Shown piece after piece: positions 1-8,772 of a stretch of DNA of 64,000 nt (its first letter is position 1; the number at the start of each line of letters is the position of its first letter). Source of the stretch: Hwanghaeella grinnelliae (GTDB taxonomy: Bacteria; Pseudomonadota; Alphaproteobacteria; UBA8366; Aestuariispiraceae); NCBI RefSeq assembly GCF_004005845.1, contig NZ_SADE01000003.1, positions 372,001 to 436,000 on the forward strand, read 5' to 3'. The position numbers were made by a program, and so were the translations under genes. The notes beneath the pieces are model-generated. The model searched no databases. It saw only the letters and a list, made by a program, of their open reading frames with translations, and had not been told where the DNA came from.

Positions 1-1566
1 TAAAAGCGGTTCTACATTCAAATCTGATAGGTCTTCATGCGTGATCGCCTCTGGCTGAACATTTGGGTCCATGCCCTGAGATATCGCCCAACGTCTCCAA
101 TAATCCGGCCTTTGATCTTTGGTCAGTTCTTTCGACAAATCGGGATAAATAACCTCAAGATGATGCCAATTGTCGGCCCGCATATGTGGACGCAAGTCAT
201 CGTTACTTAAGTCGCGAATTGGCGCTACATTTAGAAGCGTAACTAGTGACAGCCCTGCTTCCTTCATACCTTCTTGCGCGGCAAGATTTCGGCCAAGTAT
301 GAGACCTCTGATTTTATCTCCACCTTGATTTTGCATAACGAGCAGCTGTAACGCACTGGCAATAAACTTTCGCGCTAAATCACCTGCCTTCTCTGCATCA
401 TGAGTTAACTCGTCGAGACCATCAAAAATTATTAGTGTAGGTTTAGTGTCGTCCTTTAAACGATCAAGTGGATTAGCTGCAAAGCCGGGCGATCCCTCAT
501 CACCGGTCAAACGGTTGCTGCGTGACAGGTACGAACCAATATCCAAATGGAGATCGCCTGAAAAGCTGAGGTGCTGAAGCTCTATGAAGAGTACTCTTGC
601 TATGCCACGATCGAGCAACTCGGACGCAAATGCTTTCGCAAATGAGGATTTCCCTGACCCTGGCCCACCAGCTACAATCCGGATGACATCTCTTCCTTTT
701 GTTTTTCGACCAAGCCACTCCTCTACCGTACGGTGCAAATCTCCTAAGTTTGCCTCACATTTTATTACTGTTTTCTTGGATTTTTCATTTGGGAATTCTT
801 GATCTGTTTCATGCCAATAACATCGCAACCTTAAATATATTTCGGATAGGGGCGTTAATACAGATTCGTCGGGAGAGAAAACTGGAGCGGCGCGAAAACG
901 TTGATGTATCCATTCACCATGCCTAGCCCACGCAATTTCCCAAGCTGCAGCCTCTGAAAACGTACTGGTTGCAATTTTGATAAGCGGTTCGAAAATAGAG
1001 AAATGGGCTGACAGGACGTAACTCGCAGTATTTGCCAAGCACGTATCAAAAACATGCTGCCAACGTTCCAGATCAATATCTATCCATGGGGTAACATCAA
1101 CAATGAACTGTGGTATCGCTTGTCGGGCTGGTGAAAAGGCGGCATGGGCACTTGGAAACTGAAGTATCGAAGCGTCAAAGTTTGCATCTGATGGTACAGA
1201 TAGAGCTTTCTCTAAGAATTTTTTTAGACCGATCTCCCGTTCCGCTACTGTACGACCCGTGCGAATAGGGAGTTGAGAATTAAAATTCGCTTCCCGATTA
1301 AGCTGTTTTAGGAATTCTTCGGTAGCTCCAGACACTGTCATTGTAAACCAAACCCAAGCAAGGTTTTCGGGGCTTGAGGTGTCTCTACCTTTAAGGTCCT
1401 CAACTATTGACTTGATCTTACCAATAGAACCAGCAGCAAACCGGCCATATGCAATTGGATTCCCAGTTGCGTAGGATAGAATTCCACTCAGAAAAAGAGA
1501 AATCGACGTTACGGACGCGTTTAGTACCTCACGATGCCTTGTTGGCTTCTCAAATGCGATCTCCAT
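1..1566 (-). CDS. NACHT-type P-loop NTPase, C-terminus beyond the window (likely defence protein)
   Basis: The frame is open from an ATG at 1566 to the left edge, 522 codons without a stop, so only the N-terminal part is visible. About 290 residues without recognised motifs come first. A Walker A motif (AGGPGSGKSSFAKAF) lies near residues 299-310 and a Walker B of the NACHT kind (TLIIFDGLDEL, with the DGxDE signature) near residues 375-385. NACHT proteins are STAND ATPases, and bacterial members often act as anti-phage sensors whose C-terminal repeats recognise phage products; the sensor would lie outside the window. A GGTGGGGG ribosome site precedes the start. The gene is clearly AT-richer than everything after about 2 kb, which suggests horizontal transfer. 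The NTPase class is secure; the defence role is inferred from family and context. Confidence 0.75.
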   Translation of the reverse strand, partial: MEIAFEKPTRHREVLNASVTSISLFLSGILSYATGNPIAYGRFAAGSIGKIKSIVEDLKGRDTSSPENLAWVWFTMTVSGATEEFLKQLNREANFNSQLPIRTGRTVAEREIGLKKFLEKALSVPSDANFDASILQFPSAHAAFSPARQAIPQFIVDVTPWIDIDLERWQHVFDTCLANTASYVLSAHFSIFEPLIKIATSTFSEAAAWEIAWARHGEWIHQRFRAAPVFSPDESVLTPLSEIYLRLRCYWHETDQEFPNEKSKKTVIKCEANLGDLHRTVEEWLGRKTKGRDVIRIVAGGPGSGKSSFAKAFASELLDRGIARVLFIELQHLSFSGDLHLDIGSYLSRSNRLTGDEGSPGFAANPLDRLKDDTKPTLIIFDGLDELTHDAEKAGDLARKFIASALQLLVMQNQGGDKIRGLILGRNLAAQEGMKEAGLSLVTLLNVAPIRDLSNDDLRPHMRADNWHHLEVIYPDLSKELTKDQRPDYWRRWAISQGMDPNVQPEAITHEDLSDLNVEPLL

Positions 1567-1882
1567 CACCCCCACCTTTATGATTATGGCGTTGGTTGAT
1601 ACAGTAGATCATAAAGCACTTTTTAGTCGATAATAATGCCGGTGGGAGTTCCTAGTTTTTTTGTGAAAATATGTCAGTCATTCCGGTGACATATGTGGAC
1701 GGCCCCCTCTTGGGCAAGGGCTTGATGAAGGTATAGCCGTCGTTGCGTGCAGTCATATGTCCGGGTTACAGTGACAGTTTACTAAATAATTCAAAAGTCG
1801 ATTGTTACGTTCCAAGAGAACATCCCTTGCGGTACAACCTCCGTGGATCCAGCCTAGCTATGGAACGTGGTCGCGTGCATCG
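1567..1882. other. Gene-free AT-rich spacer at the island border
   Basis: This stretch separates the NACHT gene from the PAS-like gene. It holds the 5' region of the NACHT gene and a 105-bp element with imperfect terminal inverted repeats, listed separately. No ORF here has convincing coding character. Confidence 0.5.
1672..1776. mobile_element. Possible MITE or IS remnant with imperfect terminal inverted repeats
   Basis: The left end reads TGTCAGTCATTCCGGTGACA followed by TATG. The reverse complement of the right end reads TGTCACTGTAACCCGGACAT followed by ATG. The ends share TGTCA at the tip and a CCGG-ACATATG core about 10 bases further in. The interior is GC-richer than its surroundings and encodes a short minus-strand peptide containing NDGYTFIKPLPKRGP, of unknown origin. 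No target-site duplication is obvious. It sits at the junction of low-GC and high-GC DNA. It may instead be a chance imperfect palindrome. Confidence 0.4.
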
Positions 1883-2494
1883 TCACGATGCCGCTAAGCG
1901 CGACGCGCGGAAGGTGGTGAATTCTTCTAAAAGGTCTTCGTATTCGTCTCGCTGGAAGGATTCCTTTAGTTCGAAACTCCAAAGCCCGATCATCAGATCA
2001 CTGGCGACGTCCTTGCCGGTTGGGCCGGGTTGCCGGCCGAGAGGCAGAAACATGGTGTAAATTCCGCGCGGCCTACCTTCCATGGAGGCATAGGTGAGCC
2101 GCAGAACCTTTGGCTCGATAGTTCTGCCTGTTGACATGAATAGTTCATGGACAAGATCTGTTTTTGTTTTTTGAATGCGCATCGCATCGCTGGACCGGCT
2201 GCCGGGCCGCAGCCGAGGCGCAACCGCGTTCAATTCGGAACTGATGAGGTCGTACCGATAGTCCGTGCATCCATCGATCAGCGCGCCAAGGCTGACATGG
2301 GGGATCAGCCGCGCGCCGAGTGTTAAAGGATCAACGGCACGTCTTGGCTTGTCCCCAGGCAATGCTACCCAGTAATCAAACAGCTCAACCATCTTCTCAA
2401 AATAAAAGGCCGACTCGGCCGGGCCGCTGCTGATCATTTCGTTCATGGTGTGTCTCGCGTTACTGTGCGTCACAGCATCATGACTATTGCCCAT
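1883..2494 (-). CDS. PAS_5-like domain protein
   Basis: The product is about 203 residues. The segment around LFDYWVALPGD, then RAVDPLTLGARLIPHVSL and YRYDLISSELN, follows the layout of the PAS_5 family common in Rhodospirillales: a YW...L..G start, an IDP...LP.i.L block, then an RYRL-like strand. These are single-domain putative sensors without a known output. No effector domain or signal peptide is visible. The longest start (2494) lies inside the last codons of the desulfhydrase remnant, so an internal ATG at 2446 or 2437 is also possible. A second PAS_5-like gene lies at 5689. The fold assignment is from motif layout only. Confidence 0.6.
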   Translation of the reverse strand: MGNSHDAVTHSNARHTMNEMISSGPAESAFYFEKMVELFDYWVALPGDKPRRAVDPLTLGARLIPHVSLGALIDGCTDYRYDLISSELNAVAPRLRPGSRSSDAMRIQKTKTDLVHELFMSTGRTIEPKVLRLTYASMEGRPRGIYTMFLPLGRQPGPTGKDVASDLMIGLWSFELKESFQRDEYEDLLEEFTTFRASRLAAS

Positions 2495-2668
2495 ACCCCG
2501 GCAGATCGAAAATCTCCGGGTAGCCGAAGAGCGCGGCGCTGCCGCCGGTGTGGAGGAAGACGACGTTGTCCATGACGTCGAAAGTGACTTTGCGGGTTTG
2601 GTCGATCAGGCCTTGCAGGTCCTTGCCGGAATAGATCGGGTCGAAAAGCAGGCCTTCCAAGCGAAACA
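2484..2668 (-). pseudogene. 3' remnant of a D-cysteine desulfhydrase-family gene
   Basis: About 59 codons, from [14 protein letters not shown] to the stop after FDLPGYGQ, match the C-terminus of the intact gene at 3744-4814 ([14 protein letters not shown] ... FDLPGYRA) at roughly 50 of 59 residues. The reading frame and stop are kept, but everything upstream of residue ~298 of the family is missing and is replaced by the promoter region of the VPLPA-CTERM gene. The remnant and the intact gene lie in the same orientation about 1.25 kb apart and bracket that gene. Without a PLP lysine or N-terminal domain it cannot be an enzyme. Confidence 0.85.
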
Positions 2669-2705: not shown

Positions 2706-2725
2706 CAGACCCGCATAAGGGTCTG
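2706..2725. other. Small perfect hairpin upstream of the VPLPA-CTERM gene
   Basis: CAGACCC and GGGTCTG form a 7-bp perfect stem around a GCATAA loop, about 85 bases before the start codon at 2809. There is no T-run, so it is not an intrinsic terminator. It could be an operator or a 5' UTR structure. Confidence 0.4.
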
Positions 2726-2808
2726 AAATGATTTGGATTAAACGTCCGCGACCCGCACAATCAATGCATCCTAATATGAATGTTCCATGTGATTTTGGGG
2801 AGAATGTT

Positions 2809-3654
2809 ATGCGTTTTGCGGGCAGAGATTTTCTTAAGGGCGCGGTCACCGCATCGGCCTTGATGGTCCTGGGGTCGGGCGCGGCCCAGGCGGCAACGGT
2901 GTTCGACCAAGGGTTTGAAACGGATACGGCGGGCTGGTTCGACGAGAATTCCGGCTGGACCGGCAGCGTGACGCGCCAGGCCAGCGGCACCGACGGCATC
3001 GCGGCCCATGAAGGGAATTTCTACGCGAACTTCCAGCAAACGGATACGCAGGGGATCGGAGTGTCCGGGGCCTTCACGCGGTTCGACGGATTTCGCGACA
3101 CCTTCCCCGGCACCTACTCCGCCAGCGCCGCGATCTATCTGGACACGAGCTGGGCCGCCGGCGAAGGGTTCGACTATTCGGTCGCATCCAGCGGGTCCGA
3201 CGGGGGCCACCAACGCGACTTCATCTTCCATGTGGCGAAAGACACCTCCACCGGCTCGCTTCTGGTGGGCGGCAGCAACAATACCAATTTCGATCCGCGC
3301 CAGGACCTGGAAAACCTGAACCATTTCGAGGTCACGGAAACGGGCTGGTATATCTTCGAGCATCTGTTCCGCGAAGACGGCGGCCAACTCGCCGTGGACC
3401 TGAACCTTTACAATGCGGCGAGCGTCCTTCTGTTCACGGAGACCCGCACCAACGCGGCGGACACCATTCCCGGCGAAGTCGGCGGCAACCGCTATGGCTG
3501 GTTCACCAATATCGACATCGACGGCGGCATCGCGGTGGACGCGACGCAGTTGAACATCTCTGCCGTCCCGGTTCCGGCGGCCCTGCCCCTTCTGTTGAGC
3601 GGTCTGGGCCTGTTCGGCATCGTCGGGCGGTTCAGGCGCCGGGCGAAAGTCTAA
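2809..3654 (+). CDS. VPLPA-CTERM sorting domain-containing exported protein
   Basis: The start at 2809 is chosen because GGGGAGA lies just upstream and a signal peptide (MRFAGRDFLKGAV ... GSGAAQA) follows directly. The mature part, about 250 residues rich in Gly, Asp, Thr and aromatic residues, begins ATVFDQGFETDTAGWFDE and resembles secreted beta-sandwich domains, but no enzyme family is recognised. The C-terminus has the sorting-signal layout: VPVPAALPLLLSGLGLFG, a hydrophobic helix, then RFRRRAK. In this family an exosortase-type protease is expected to process the tail during export to the cell surface. The gene lies between the desulfhydrase remnant and the intact desulfhydrase gene and is followed by a strong terminator. 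Confidence 0.8.
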   Translation: MRFAGRDFLKGAVTASALMVLGSGAAQAATVFDQGFETDTAGWFDENSGWTGSVTRQASGTDGIAAHEGNFYANFQQTDTQGIGVSGAFTRFDGFRDTFPGTYSASAAIYLDTSWAAGEGFDYSVASSGSDGGHQRDFIFHVAKDTSTGSLLVGGSNNTNFDPRQDLENLNHFEVTETGWYIFEHLFREDGGQLAVDLNLYNAASVLLFTETRTNAADTIPGEVGGNRYGWFTNIDIDGGIAVDATQLNISAVPVPAALPLLLSGLGLFGIVGRFRRRAKV

Positions 3655-3743: not shown

Positions 3744-4814
3744 CTATGCCCGATACCCCGGCAGATCGAAGATATCCGGGTAGCCGAAGAGCGCAGCGCT
3801 GCCGCCGGTGTGGAGGAAGACGACGTTGTCCATGCCGTCGAAATAGCCTTTGCGGGTTTGGTCGATCAGGCCGTCCAGGCCCTTGCCGCTATAGACCGGG
3901 TCGAAGAGCAGGCCTTCCAGCCGGGCGAGGGTTTTGAGGGCTTCTTTCATGCCTTCCGTCGGCATGCCGTAGCCGGGGCCGACATAGTCGCAATTGGCGC
4001 GGACCGCGGCCCGGTCGATTTCTTCACCCGTCCCGAGATAATCGAGCGTCTTACAGGCCAGGTCATGGACCATGCTCTCCTGTTTTTCCTTCCGCGCGCG
4101 CACGCCGATGCCGAGCAGGTGGATGTCGCTTTCCAGCGCCGCCAAGCCGGCGACGAGGCCTGCCTGCGTGCCCGAACTGCCGGTGGCGTGAACGAGCGCG
4201 TCGATCTTCAAGTCCATTGCGGCGGCCTGTTCCACCAGTTCCGCCGCGCAATTCACATAGCCCAGCGCGCCGATCCGGTTGGAGCCGCCGCCGGGGATGA
4301 CGTAGGGCTTTTTGCCTTGAGTTTTCAGATCCTCGGCGAGCGCTTCCATTTCCGCCTGCATGTCTGCCCCGCCGGGGCGTTTGGCGATGGTGCTGCCGTG
4401 CAATTGGTCCAACAGCACATTGCCGTTGAGGGTATAGGCCGGGTCGTTGGAGCCGGTCCGATCCTCCAGCAGGATATGGCATTCCAGGCCGAGCTTGGCG
4501 CAGGCCGCCGCCGTCTGGCGCGCATGGTTGGATTGGGTGGCGCCCTGGGTGATGACGGTATCGGCACCCCCTTCCAGCGCGTCGGCCATCAGGAATTCCA
4601 ACTTGCGCGTCTTGTTGCCGCCGGACGAAAGGCCGGTGCAATCGTCCCGCTTCACCCAGATGCGCGGGCCGCCGAGCCACTCGCTCAACCGGTCCATCGG
4701 CTCCAGCGGCGTGGGGAAATGCCCCAGCGACAGGCGCGGGAATTTCCCAATGGCCTTTTTAACCAAGGGAAGGGTCGTTTCGGTCTTGCCGCCGGTTATG
4801 TCCGTCGCGTTCAT
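3744..4814 (-). CDS. D-cysteine desulfhydrase / L-cysteate sulfo-lyase family PLP enzyme
   Basis: The product is 356 residues, the normal length for the ACC deaminase/D-cysteine desulfhydrase family (fold type II PLP enzymes). The PLP lysine is K68 in [14 protein letters not shown]. The family blocks [35 protein letters not shown] and [12 protein letters not shown] are intact, as is the C-terminal [12 protein letters not shown]. The enzyme should eliminate H2S, or sulfite in the case of cysteate lyase, with release of pyruvate and ammonia in the cytoplasm. Sequence alone does not separate D-cysteine from L-cysteate specificity; in marine alphaproteobacteria CuyA-type sulfo-lyases belong to the same family. 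GGAGAG precedes the start. A 3' partial copy lies at 2484-2668. Confidence 0.85.
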
Positions 4815-5086
4815 CGGGGTCTCTCTCCTTTGCCATCATTCGGCCTAGGCTACCGCGTTACAGCCGGTTTGAATAACGCCAATATCGCCGGGCCGCCGTA
4901 TTTTTCATATGGCCTGGGAACGGAGACGCAACGTCTCGACACGCAATGATTTCACCGCGCTGGCAAATCGGCACGCCTCCTCCTATGGTATATACGTAAA
5001 TGCTAATGGTTTTGCTTACGGATCGACCTTGGCTCCAGATCGACTTTTTTGGGGGGCGGTTCGCGGCATAGCGGATGGAGGTTCCG

Positions 5087-7175: not shown

Positions 7176-7293
7176 GCGCATCCCCTGCTTTCCGGCGCGC
7201 ATCAACAGCGGTTAACCCCTGCCCCGGCGCCTGTCACATTCTCGCAACGTTATCTGTCTACACAAGCCCATTACTTGGCTTTTGGGGGTAACC

Positions 7294-8772
7294 ATGAAAC
7301 GTCTTTTGATGACGACCGCGATTGCGGTTGTCTCGTTTTCCTTTCCGAATTTGGCTCTTGCCGATTGCGACGATCTTTCGCCGGGCGGCGGCGATACGGT
7401 GACCTGTACAGCGACCGATGTGTTCGACGGGCCGGACGCCGTGGAAACGCGGTTCCTGGACGACGGCAGCAAGGACGTGATCGTCGACGTGCTGTCCGGC
7501 GCGGTGATCGACACGACCGCTTCCGGCGAAGACGCGATCAAGCTGAAAGACGACAACAACAGGGTAAACAACGCCGGCACCATAAACGGCGGTGACGAAG
7601 CCATTGTCGGTGGCGACGGCCTGACGGTCGAGAATAACGGCACGATTACGGCGGTGGACCAGGGCATCGTCGGCGAGAACGAAGCAGACGAGGATGCCGA
7701 CGGCGTGCGGGTCCTGAACAATGGCAGCATCATCACCGAAGACCGCGCCATCAATGTCGGCGGCGGTGCGGGCCTGTTCGTGGAGAACAACGCCGGCGCG
7801 CTGATCCAGGCCGGGGATGAAGGCATTCAGGGTGGCGACGGGTTGACCGTTGAAAACGCCGGCACCATTACTGCCGTCAAGAAAACGATCGACGCCAATG
7901 GCGAGTTTGTCAGCATCACAAACGAGGCGACGGGCATCATCCGCTCCACGACGAATGAGGGGATCGAGGCCGAGGACAACGCCACGATCATCAATCGCGG
8001 CGTGATCGAGGGCTTCGACGATGCGGTCCAGGTCGGCGAAGGCGCGTATATCGAAAACTACGGCACCATCGAGAACACCCAGACCCAGGCGGACCTGGAT
8101 GCCGACCCGGGGCTTGAGGCGCAGGACTCCATCGATATCGACAGCGGCACGATCTATAACGAAGGGACCATCCGCTCCACCACCAACTCCGCCATCGACT
8201 ACGATCCGGGCGCAGCGACCTCCACGATCCAGAACCGCGGCCTGATCACCGGCACCATCGCGGTGAATACCGATGACGGCGACATGGCGGGCCAGGAGAT
8301 CTTCAATGCGGGTACACTGGTCGGCACAGAGGGTTTGGCGCTTTACCTCGGCCAAGGCACGGACAAGCTGGTCAACCTGAAGGGCGGCGAGATCGTCGGG
8401 GGCGCCGATTTCGGCACGGCGGCGGATGAACTCGTCTTCGAGGTCGACTACTTCGACGACAATATCGGACTGTTCGCCGGCGGCGCGCTGTTCGATGGCG
8501 GGGACGGGCTCGACACTGTCTCCTTCCTGGGGCTGCTGAGCACCGACATCGTCGATGTTTCCCTGAACAACGGCGAATTGCTGTTGAGCGTGCTGGGCAA
8601 TGGCGGCGAAGCGGTCTTGCGGCTGCTCTCCTGGGAAAGCTTCCGGTTCGCGGACAGGACGCTCGATCTCGACGGGTTGGTCGCGGCGGTACCGCTTCCG
8701 GCGGGGATGCTTCTGTTCGGAACGGCGCTTGTGGGGCTCGGCGTCGCTTCGCGGCAACGTAACCAAGCGTAA
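7294..8772 (+). CDS. VPLPA-CTERM protein with beta-helix-like NxGTI repeats
   Basis: The start at 7294 follows a GGGGG stretch, and the signal peptide ends SFPNLALA before DCDDLSPGGGD. Residues ~60-370 carry many short repeats of the form (V)ENxGTI, such as NNAGTINGGDEAI, DGLTVENNGTITAV and LNNGSIITEDRAI. These are typical of right-handed parallel beta-helix surface proteins. A ~74-residue unit is duplicated: GDGLTVENNGTITAV and GDGLTVENAGTITAV are 222 bases apart. The C-terminus has VPLPAGMLLFGTALVGLG followed by RQRNQA, an exosortase-type sorting signal. A hemolysin-like GGDGLDTVSF segment near residue 400 precedes the tail. It is probably a surface adhesin or matrix protein. Confidence 0.8.
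   Translation: MKRLLMTTAIAVVSFSFPNLALADCDDLSPGGGDTVTCTATDVFDGPDAVETRFLDDGSKDVIVDVLSGAVIDTTASGEDAIKLKDDNNRVNNAGTINGGDEAIVGGDGLTVENNGTITAVDQGIVGENEADEDADGVRVLNNGSIITEDRAINVGGGAGLFVENNAGALIQAGDEGIQGGDGLTVENAGTITAVKKTIDANGEFVSITNEATGIIRSTTNEGIEAEDNATIINRGVIEGFDDAVQVGEGAYIENYGTIENTQTQADLDADPGLEAQDSIDIDSGTIYNEGTIRSTTNSAIDYDPGAATSTIQNRGLITGTIAVNTDDGDMAGQEIFNAGTLVGTEGLALYLGQGTDKLVNLKGGEIVGGADFGTAADELVFEVDYFDDNIGLFAGGALFDGGDGLDTVSFLGLLSTDIVDVSLNNGELLLSVLGNGGEAVLRLLSWESFRFADRTLDLDGLVAAVPLPAGMLLFGTALVGLGVASRQRNQA

What the first reader, a model, noticed from the sequence alone, without database searches (positions are those of the whole stretch)
1..1566. Truncated NACHT NTPase at an AT-rich island edge, a candidate anti-phage gene
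The N-terminal ~290 residues match no domain I recognise and precede a clear NACHT P-loop (GPGSGKSS, IIFDGLDEL). The composition differs from the rest of the window. NACHT proteins with unknown N-terminal parts are a rich source of phage sensors, and the C-terminal sensor and any partner genes lie just outside. The N-terminal region may be a new effector.
Basis: partly seen in the sequence, partly recalled or inferred. Interest (0 to 1): 0.65.

Follow-up and report, generated by a model that had tools for sequence, protein, structure and literature searches.

The report
Bacterial NLR-like sensor with pentapeptide repeats
The gene cut off at the window's edge is intact in the genome and encodes a stand-alone bacterial relative of animal NLR immune receptors, probably a horizontally spread sensor of viruses or other invaders; it belongs to a widespread family and does not carry a brand-new effector.

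Summary
The ORF is real but not truncated: in the genome it is an intact 991-residue gene (C3:370591-373566) cut by the window edge. Its N-terminal ~290 residues are a divergent relative of Pfam NNH3, 'NACHT N-terminal Helical domain 3' (51 of 62 family N-termini match NNH3 at E <= 0.1, the window's own not; profile-profile probability 98.8%), so not a new effector class. The NACHT core models like animal NLRs (NOD2, NLRC4), and the C-terminus is a pentapeptide-repeat beta-helix. The N-domain shows no conserved catalytic residues; I found no general partner gene. The family is patchy and horizontally moved, and in two kinds of predicted prophage lies by the phage repressor. The 'AT-rich island' here is this one gene plus about 430 bp. 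Best reading: a single-gene NLR-like sensor, probably anti-phage or anti-mobile-element, whose helical N-domain acts after oligomerisation. Immune function is inferred, not shown. In 39 of 78 family genes the sensor DNA carries tandem duplication beyond what the peptide repeats require, though not in the window gene. New member of a known kind.

The parts
1..1566 (-). 5' part (522 of 991 codons) of the NLR-like gene; the rest lies left of the window at C3:370591-372000
691..1566 (-). N-terminal all-helical domain plus linker (residues 1-292), divergent NNH3
   Evidence: homology; model
187..690 (-). NACHT nucleotide-binding module (residues 293-460, approximate)
   Evidence: NACHT E 1.1e-4, below Pfam's own cut-off; NOD2 Z 16.3, NLRC4 Z 15.7
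643..669 (-). Walker A, GGPGSGKSS (residues 300-308)
403..435 (-). Walker B, LIIFDGLDELT (residues 378-388)
1572..1578 (-). possible ribosome-binding site AAGGTGG
   Evidence: weak alone
1567..2000 (.). low-GC upstream segment; right end of the one-gene low-GC stretch (approximate)

Best explanation
A single-gene NLR-like STAND ATPase that senses an invader inside the cell. Shown or modelled: helical NNH3-type N-domain, NACHT with winged-helix and helical parts arranged as in animal NLRs, C-terminal pentapeptide beta-helix. Inferred mechanism: at rest it is an ADP-bound monomer held shut by its C-terminal half; a phage or mobile-element product (or a host protein altered by one) binds the pentapeptide/helical sensor; nucleotide exchange opens the NACHT module; the protein oligomerises and clusters the NNH3 domains. 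With no conserved catalytic residues seen in the N-domain and no general neighbour gene, the clustered helical domains most likely act themselves, on the membrane or by capturing a host protein, and stop the infected cell's growth.
For: Architecture: Pfam pentapeptide 3.5e-16 and NACHT 1.1e-4; AlphaFold2 model pLDDT 86.8, pTM 0.85; structure matches NOD2 Z 16.3 over 362 residues, NLRC4 Z 15.7 over 382, pentapeptide proteins Z up to 18.5. Constant build: 61 of 62 members carry pentapeptide repeats after the core; 51 of 62 N-termini match NNH3 at E <= 0.1. ATPase motifs intact (loci were fetched with Walker-A/B peptide patterns, so their invariance is partly selected). N-domain: no single polar residue in more than 81% of 62 rows. 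No neighbour family shared by more than 9 of 87 loci. Horizontal movement: the same-genus homologue groups with Paracoccaceae (100/97), not with the window gene; the gene is lower in GC than its flanks in 66 of 79 loci. Phage context: 11 IMG/VR contigs carry the same protein; in the one examined (L099) it directly follows a CI-like repressor, with a phage transposase beyond; in L101 it lies between a repressor and an integrase.
Against: No protection or toxicity was measured. No PADLOC system model matches convincingly (best E 8e-4 over 42 residues). The window copy lies beside housekeeping-type genes, not in a recognised defence island. No listed phage record matches beyond the repeat region (7 of 7; 20 of 126 shown; none), and plasmids give none close and two distant or partial core matches. 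Membrane action rests on absence of catalytic residues; the helices are only mildly amphipathic and no solved fold matches clearly. Defence-type neighbours of relatives have no baseline. Sensor divergence is greatest in one own pair but not in another.
Confidence: 0.6

Rival explanations
1. Same NLR-like sensor, but NNH3 is an adaptor that recruits an effector encoded elsewhere in the genome, as adaptor domains do in other bacterial conflict systems.
For: N-domain without conserved catalytic residues; small all-helical fold; an adaptor thought to recruit a separate protease is described for related NACHT/STAND sensors (PMC10907252, passage seen); 9 cyanobacterial loci do share an upstream gene.
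Against: No neighbour is shared by more than 9 of 87 loci; whole-gene transfer among distant hosts would separate sensor from partner.
Confidence: 0.2
2. A non-immune STAND regulator, for example of development or stress, as the cyanobacterial pentapeptide protein HetL is.
For: Many of the 80 listed relatives are cyanobacterial; the C-terminal repeats score against HetL, though any pentapeptide protein would; the window gene's nearest neighbours are housekeeping-type genes.
Against: Patchy distribution, host-incongruent tree, low GC, prophage carriage.
Confidence: 0.12
3. A gene that serves a prophage or other mobile element (exclusion of competitors or element maintenance) and has been left behind in this chromosome.
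For: Relatives next to repressor and integrase genes; low-GC single-gene stretch here.
Against: No integrase, repressor or other phage gene was recognised among the ORFs scanned beside the window copy; most relatives were not tested for prophage context.
Confidence: 0.08

Closest known systems
Pfam PF22735 NNH3 (NACHT N-terminal Helical domain 3)
   Same: Position before NACHT, all-helical model, near full-length profile alignment
   Different: The window protein itself gives no NNH3 hit; 4 of the 14 members of its close clade do at E <= 1, best 9.3e-6
Bacterial NACHT / NLR-related anti-phage proteins (bNACHT02, 12, 25, 32; passages of PMC12169576 seen)
   Same: Single-protein NACHT with N-terminal and C-terminal accessory parts
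   Different: bNACHT25/32 carry a PD-(D/E)XK nuclease and NCH1, bNACHT02/12 a SNaCT domain; here an NNH3-type N-domain and pentapeptide C-terminus
Animal NLRs NOD2, NLRC4, NLRP3 (solved structures)
   Same: NACHT-winged helix-helical domain geometry
   Different: Leucine-rich repeats replaced by pentapeptide repeats; different N-domain
Fungal NLRs with highly conserved internal WD/TPR/ANK repeats (PMC4986451, passages seen)
   Same: NLR-type sensors whose repeat region can diversify by repeat reshuffling
   Different: Pentapeptide repeats in prokaryotes; exchange between genes not shown here
Bacterial TRADD-N conflict proteins with C-terminal pentapeptide repeats (PMC8195603, passage seen)
   Same: Pentapeptide repeats in a conflict-system protein
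   Different: Different N-domain; a STAND NTPase there is one of several alternative partners
DGR-diversified NACHT sensors (PMC10907252, passages seen)
   Same: NACHT proteins with a diversified C-terminal sensor
   Different: Lectin-type sensor changed by a retroelement; here repeat duplication

Membership tests
NACHT / NLR-type STAND NTPases | P-loop and NACHT-type Walker B (hhhhDGhDE) | tested here: met
NACHT / NLR-type STAND NTPases | NACHT profile match over Pfam's curated cut-off | tested here: inconclusive
   22.6 bits against a cut-off of 26.7, E 1.1e-4; a detection threshold, not an anatomical feature
NACHT / NLR-type STAND NTPases | NACHT-winged helix-helical domain geometry of solved NLRs | tested here: met
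   model against NOD2 Z 16.3, rmsd 4.5, 362 residues; NLRC4 Z 15.7
NACHT / NLR-type STAND NTPases | three-part build: N-terminal signalling domain, NTPase, C-terminal superstructure-forming repeats | tested here: met
NACHT / NLR-type STAND NTPases | ligand-induced, nucleotide-dependent oligomerisation | not testable with these tools
   needs protein
NNH3 (PF22735) | direct match of the window protein to the Pfam model | tested here: not met
   no hit; the whole-genome search gave only one sub-threshold match (E 0.13) in an ORF that I read as a UvrD-type helicase
NNH3 (PF22735) | homology over the whole domain, through intermediates | tested here: met
   hhalign 98.8%, E 4.4e-17, 259 of 278 columns; 4 of 14 close relatives match NNH3 at E <= 1, best 9.3e-6. 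Filed as a divergent relative, not as a Pfam-scored member
NNH3 (PF22735) | helical domain directly N-terminal to NACHT | tested here: met
Pentapeptide-repeat proteins (PF00805) | tandem pentapeptide repeats over the curated cut-off, and the beta-helix fold | tested here: met
   58.8 bits against 20.2; Z up to 18.5
Known anti-phage systems in PADLOC-DB 2.0.0 (2023) | match to a system model | tested here: not met
   best E 8e-4 over 42 residues, 2.8e-3 for the full length
Anti-phage NLR-related proteins (bNACHT) | protection against phage | not testable with these tools
   needs an experiment

The most novel reading that the evidence does not exclude
A prokaryote-wide NLR family (NNH3-NACHT-pentapeptide) whose sensor diversifies by tandem duplication of DNA units inside the pentapeptide array, a prokaryotic counterpart of fungal NLR repeat shuffling, with the fixed N-domain acting as a non-enzymatic killer. 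In 39 of 78 family genes the C-terminal DNA repeats exceed all 100 synonymous-codon shuffles; the paralogue P0002 has a 60-bp unit in 3.7 copies at 91%. The window gene itself shows no such repeats.
Probability: 0.3. Interest if true: 0.55.

Novelty: new member of a known kind. Interest (0 to 1): 0.35.

Why it matters
It ties a helical N-domain whose function no call here revealed to a single-gene NLR-like build found in several bacterial phyla and an archaeon, with two paralogues in one genome and copies in predicted prophages. If the repeat-duplication signal means fast sensor change, prokaryotic NLRs could be compared directly with fungal and plant ones. As a single find in this window it is a modest addition.

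Tried and rejected
Rejected: a truncated or decayed gene (intact); an AT-rich island holding this gene with others (one gene); a general partner operon (up to four ORFs of 70 aa or more on each side from a crude caller, some loci cut by contig ends). DNA mimicry by the pentapeptide part: only mildly acidic, net -8 over residues 815-930, family median -3.55 per 100 aa with a rough boundary; not pursued. N-domain fold: no Foldseek match at E <= 0.001 in PDB or among viral proteins; best second-look match Bcl-xL, Z 5.3 over 115 residues, under the level the tool calls meaningful, so not used. Defence neighbours: among 130 neighbours in 11 loci, 47 PADLOC families match at 1e-10 (25 shown, about half of them GajA-type models hitting one protein each); no baseline, so no claim. 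A PF22735 search of 289 genomes found nothing, and nothing in the controls, so it says nothing about absence. An integrase search of 15 genomes (list cut) was not turned into a distance statistic. A Hailong HalA model match at E 0.02 lies in the repeats only. Kibby et al. 2023, which I recall as the main bacterial NACHT paper, could not be read, so I do not claim that this architecture is unpublished; six paper searches (lists capped in 37, 60 and 97) returned nothing that I recognised as describing it, judged from listings and starts of abstracts plus term-search passages of the eight papers opened; no paper was read whole.

Rows dropped: one search kept 80 of 153 related places. One search found 97 ORFs with the core, and there I chose the start codon lying nearest to 280 residues before the core, so the constant length of about 270 is partly imposed; with the most upstream start the N-terminal lengths visible are 256 to 344. 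A5, A6 and A10 use 62 rows (2 own plus 60 loci): left out were identical viral copies, cut, split or short frames, and some full-length ones for size only. One search counts 87 loci, with one virus group in twice (L089, L099). One search used 87 genes; one search tested 78 of them (short C-terminal pieces or N dropped). One search used 34 rows, four of them long branches (L104, L027, L047, L056). One search used 79 loci with enough flank. The labels 'Mu-like' and 'P2-type' for the phage genes, 'Rhs-like' and 'UvrD-type' are my own recall or reading; the PHROG texts say 'transposase' and 'nicking at origin of replication'.

Full report
Observation. The minus-strand ORF at window 1-1566 exists and runs off the left edge. 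The window is G000:C3:372001-436000, and the gene continues to a stop at C3:370591: 991 residues, no internal stop. A second full-length copy, P0002 (960 aa, 47% identical), lies on the same contig at C3:151393-154275, and a third homologue, P0003 (977 aa), in a genome of the same genus. That contig has the same length, 48,787 bases, as the public contig JANQIT010000026.1, titled 'Hwanghaeella sp.', and encodes the same protein, so the window's genus is probably Hwanghaeella (inference).

Surroundings. GC is 0.46 in the gene against 0.62 in the 5.5 kb to its left; the low-GC stretch ends about 430 bp upstream of the start, followed by an intermediate zone. To the left lie an FAD oxidoreductase / aminomethyltransferase-type gene, a trimethylamine-methyltransferase-type gene and a LysR regulator; beyond them another low-GC stretch with Rhs-like frames. 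The FAD-oxidoreductase-type protein has matches at 1e-50 in 11 of 13 genomes searched, its own included, but it is a many-copied family, so not all are orthologues. DNA alignment follows parts of this operon in G001, G003 and G005 and stops at its end. In G001 the next bases hold other ORFs, so the gene was gained here or lost there; that G001 contig is short (3,132 bases). The nearest gene after P0002 is dehydrogenase-like (my reading of its sequence).

Domains. Direct Pfam scan of the full protein gives pentapeptide repeats (3.5e-16), a sub-threshold NACHT (1.1e-4) and weaker ATPase matches, nothing for the N-terminus. PADLOC gives only weak matches. With the three-sequence core profile I fetched 80 related loci from genome contigs (of 153 related places), 13 from viral contigs, and found 4 of 385 genomes of the class positive, one being the window's own and one a short fragment. 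Identity of the best segment runs from 41-51% in the closer alphaproteobacteria to 26-34% in the other 66 listed loci, which include cyanobacteria, Acidobacteria, Bacteroidota, Bacillota and the archaeon Methanothrix, one locus at 45% aside. Scanned one by one at E <= 0.1, 51 of 62 N-termini match NNH3 (best 6.3e-56); the window's does not. In its own close clade 4 of 14 match at E <= 1 (best 9.3e-6), and the clade profile aligns to a profile of 22 more distant members over 259 of 278 columns (98.8%, E 4.4e-17). So the N-domain is a divergent NNH3. Pentapeptide repeats follow the core in 61 of 62 members.

Structure. The full-length AlphaFold2 model is good (pLDDT 86.8, pTM 0.85). Residues 203-705 match NOD2 (Z 16.3, rmsd 4.5, 362 residues) and 204-704 NLRC4 (Z 15.7, 382 residues), and the C-terminal part matches pentapeptide proteins (Z up to 18.5). 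The N-domain modelled alone (pLDDT 83.5, pTM 0.75) is helical with a beta hairpin before NACHT and has no clear match in the PDB or among viral proteins. No single polar residue occupies more than 81% of rows in its alignment, whereas W284 is in all 62 and P138, W213, F230, L240 and Y244 in 94% or more. That argues against a conserved enzyme site but does not prove its absence.

Evolution and context. In a tree of 34 cores the window gene and P0002 are sisters (99/98) and join L009 and L011, both from the Rhodobacter group (99/99), while the same-genus homologue P0003 (row L017, the same protein) joins Paracoccaceae sequences (100/97): the genus acquired the family more than once, or exchanged it (the last step is inference). 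The viral copy L089 groups with Rhizobiaceae (100/100) and the viral copy L101 with a Vibrio (99/95). The gene has lower GC than its flanks in 66 of 79 loci, by 0.05 or more in 24. Eleven IMG/VR contigs (L089-L099) encode an identical 991-residue relative. In L099 it directly follows a CI-like repressor gene, with a ParB-like gene and a phage transposase (phrog_310, 1.5e-161; Mu-like by my recall) beyond. Whether the gene lies inside the phage end is not settled, because the phage ends were not mapped. In L101 it lies between a repressor and an integrase, with an origin-nicking replication gene (phrog_91, 8.7e-155; P2-type by my recall) near by, and a Vibrio relative (L042) has a related integrase in two pieces beside its copy. 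Phage records give only repeat-region matches among the rows shown (7 of 7; 20 of 126) and none. Plasmids give no close core, and a distant or partial one on a Skermanella and a Scytonema plasmid. In 605 neighbours at 87 loci the most widely shared family occurs at 9 loci, all cyanobacterial, so I see no general partner.

Sensor variation. Between the window protein and P0002, identity is 46% in the N-domain, 55% in NACHT, 61% in residues 461-660, but 32-34% in residues 661-930. The pattern is not general: P0002 and P0003 share 49% in the repeats but 29% in the N-domain, as repetitive sequence can. Tandem Repeats Finder reports DNA arrays in the C-terminal part of 60 of 87 genes. Because a repeated peptide gives repeated DNA anyway, I shuffled synonymous codons: 39 of 78 genes exceed all 100 shuffles with a score of 50 or more, P0002 among them (377 against a maximum of 244); the window gene has no array. 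This suggests duplication inside the sensor in half of the genes tested. I did not compare pentapeptide proteins without NACHT.

Mechanism. I favour a cell-internal NLR-type sensor that oligomerises on ligand binding and acts through clustered NNH3 domains. Shown: sequence and modelled anatomy, intact motifs, distribution. Inferred: immune role, ligand binding by the pentapeptide half, oligomerisation, action of NNH3. The confidence of 0.6 is for the immune-sensor reading as a whole; the anatomy is much surer.

Novelty. NACHT, NNH3 and pentapeptide domains are all described, and single-gene NACHT defence proteins are known (PMC12169576, passages seen). I count this as a new member of a known kind. 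Six paper searches returned nothing that I recognised as describing this domain combination, but some lists were capped and the 2023 paper that I recall as central was not readable.

Noticed in passing
L003:1606-2709 (+), 2712-3293 (+), 4004-5056 (+), about 7.5-11 kb left of the NLR-like gene's stop, outside the window: Two Rhs-like frames (my reading) with the same opening but different ends; the first ends in a NucA/NucB DNase domain (6.7e-17) followed by a SUKH-type immunity gene (9.2e-14): apparent polymorphic toxin cassettes in a low-GC stretch.
   Followed up: partly
window 2488-2659 and 3746-3918: A 173-bp stretch of the 3' end of the PLP-dependent enzyme gene (3744-4814) is repeated at 91% identity about 1.26 kb away, as an apparent gene remnant near the NLR-like gene.
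   Followed up: partly
window 2728-3654 (+) and 7282-8772 (+): Two putative exported proteins ending in a PEP-CTERM-like sorting signal; the first matches PF07589, the second is read from sequence.
   Followed up: no
L018:6648-7163: A repressor 41% identical to the phage repressor of L099 lies about 2 kb upstream of the Pseudooceanicola relative of this gene.
   Followed up: no
L041, L045, L051, L059, L068, L073, L075, L078, L081, upstream of the relative: A conserved small cyanobacterial gene of unknown function lies among the four ORFs upstream of the relative in 9 loci; a possible lineage-specific partner.
   Followed up: no
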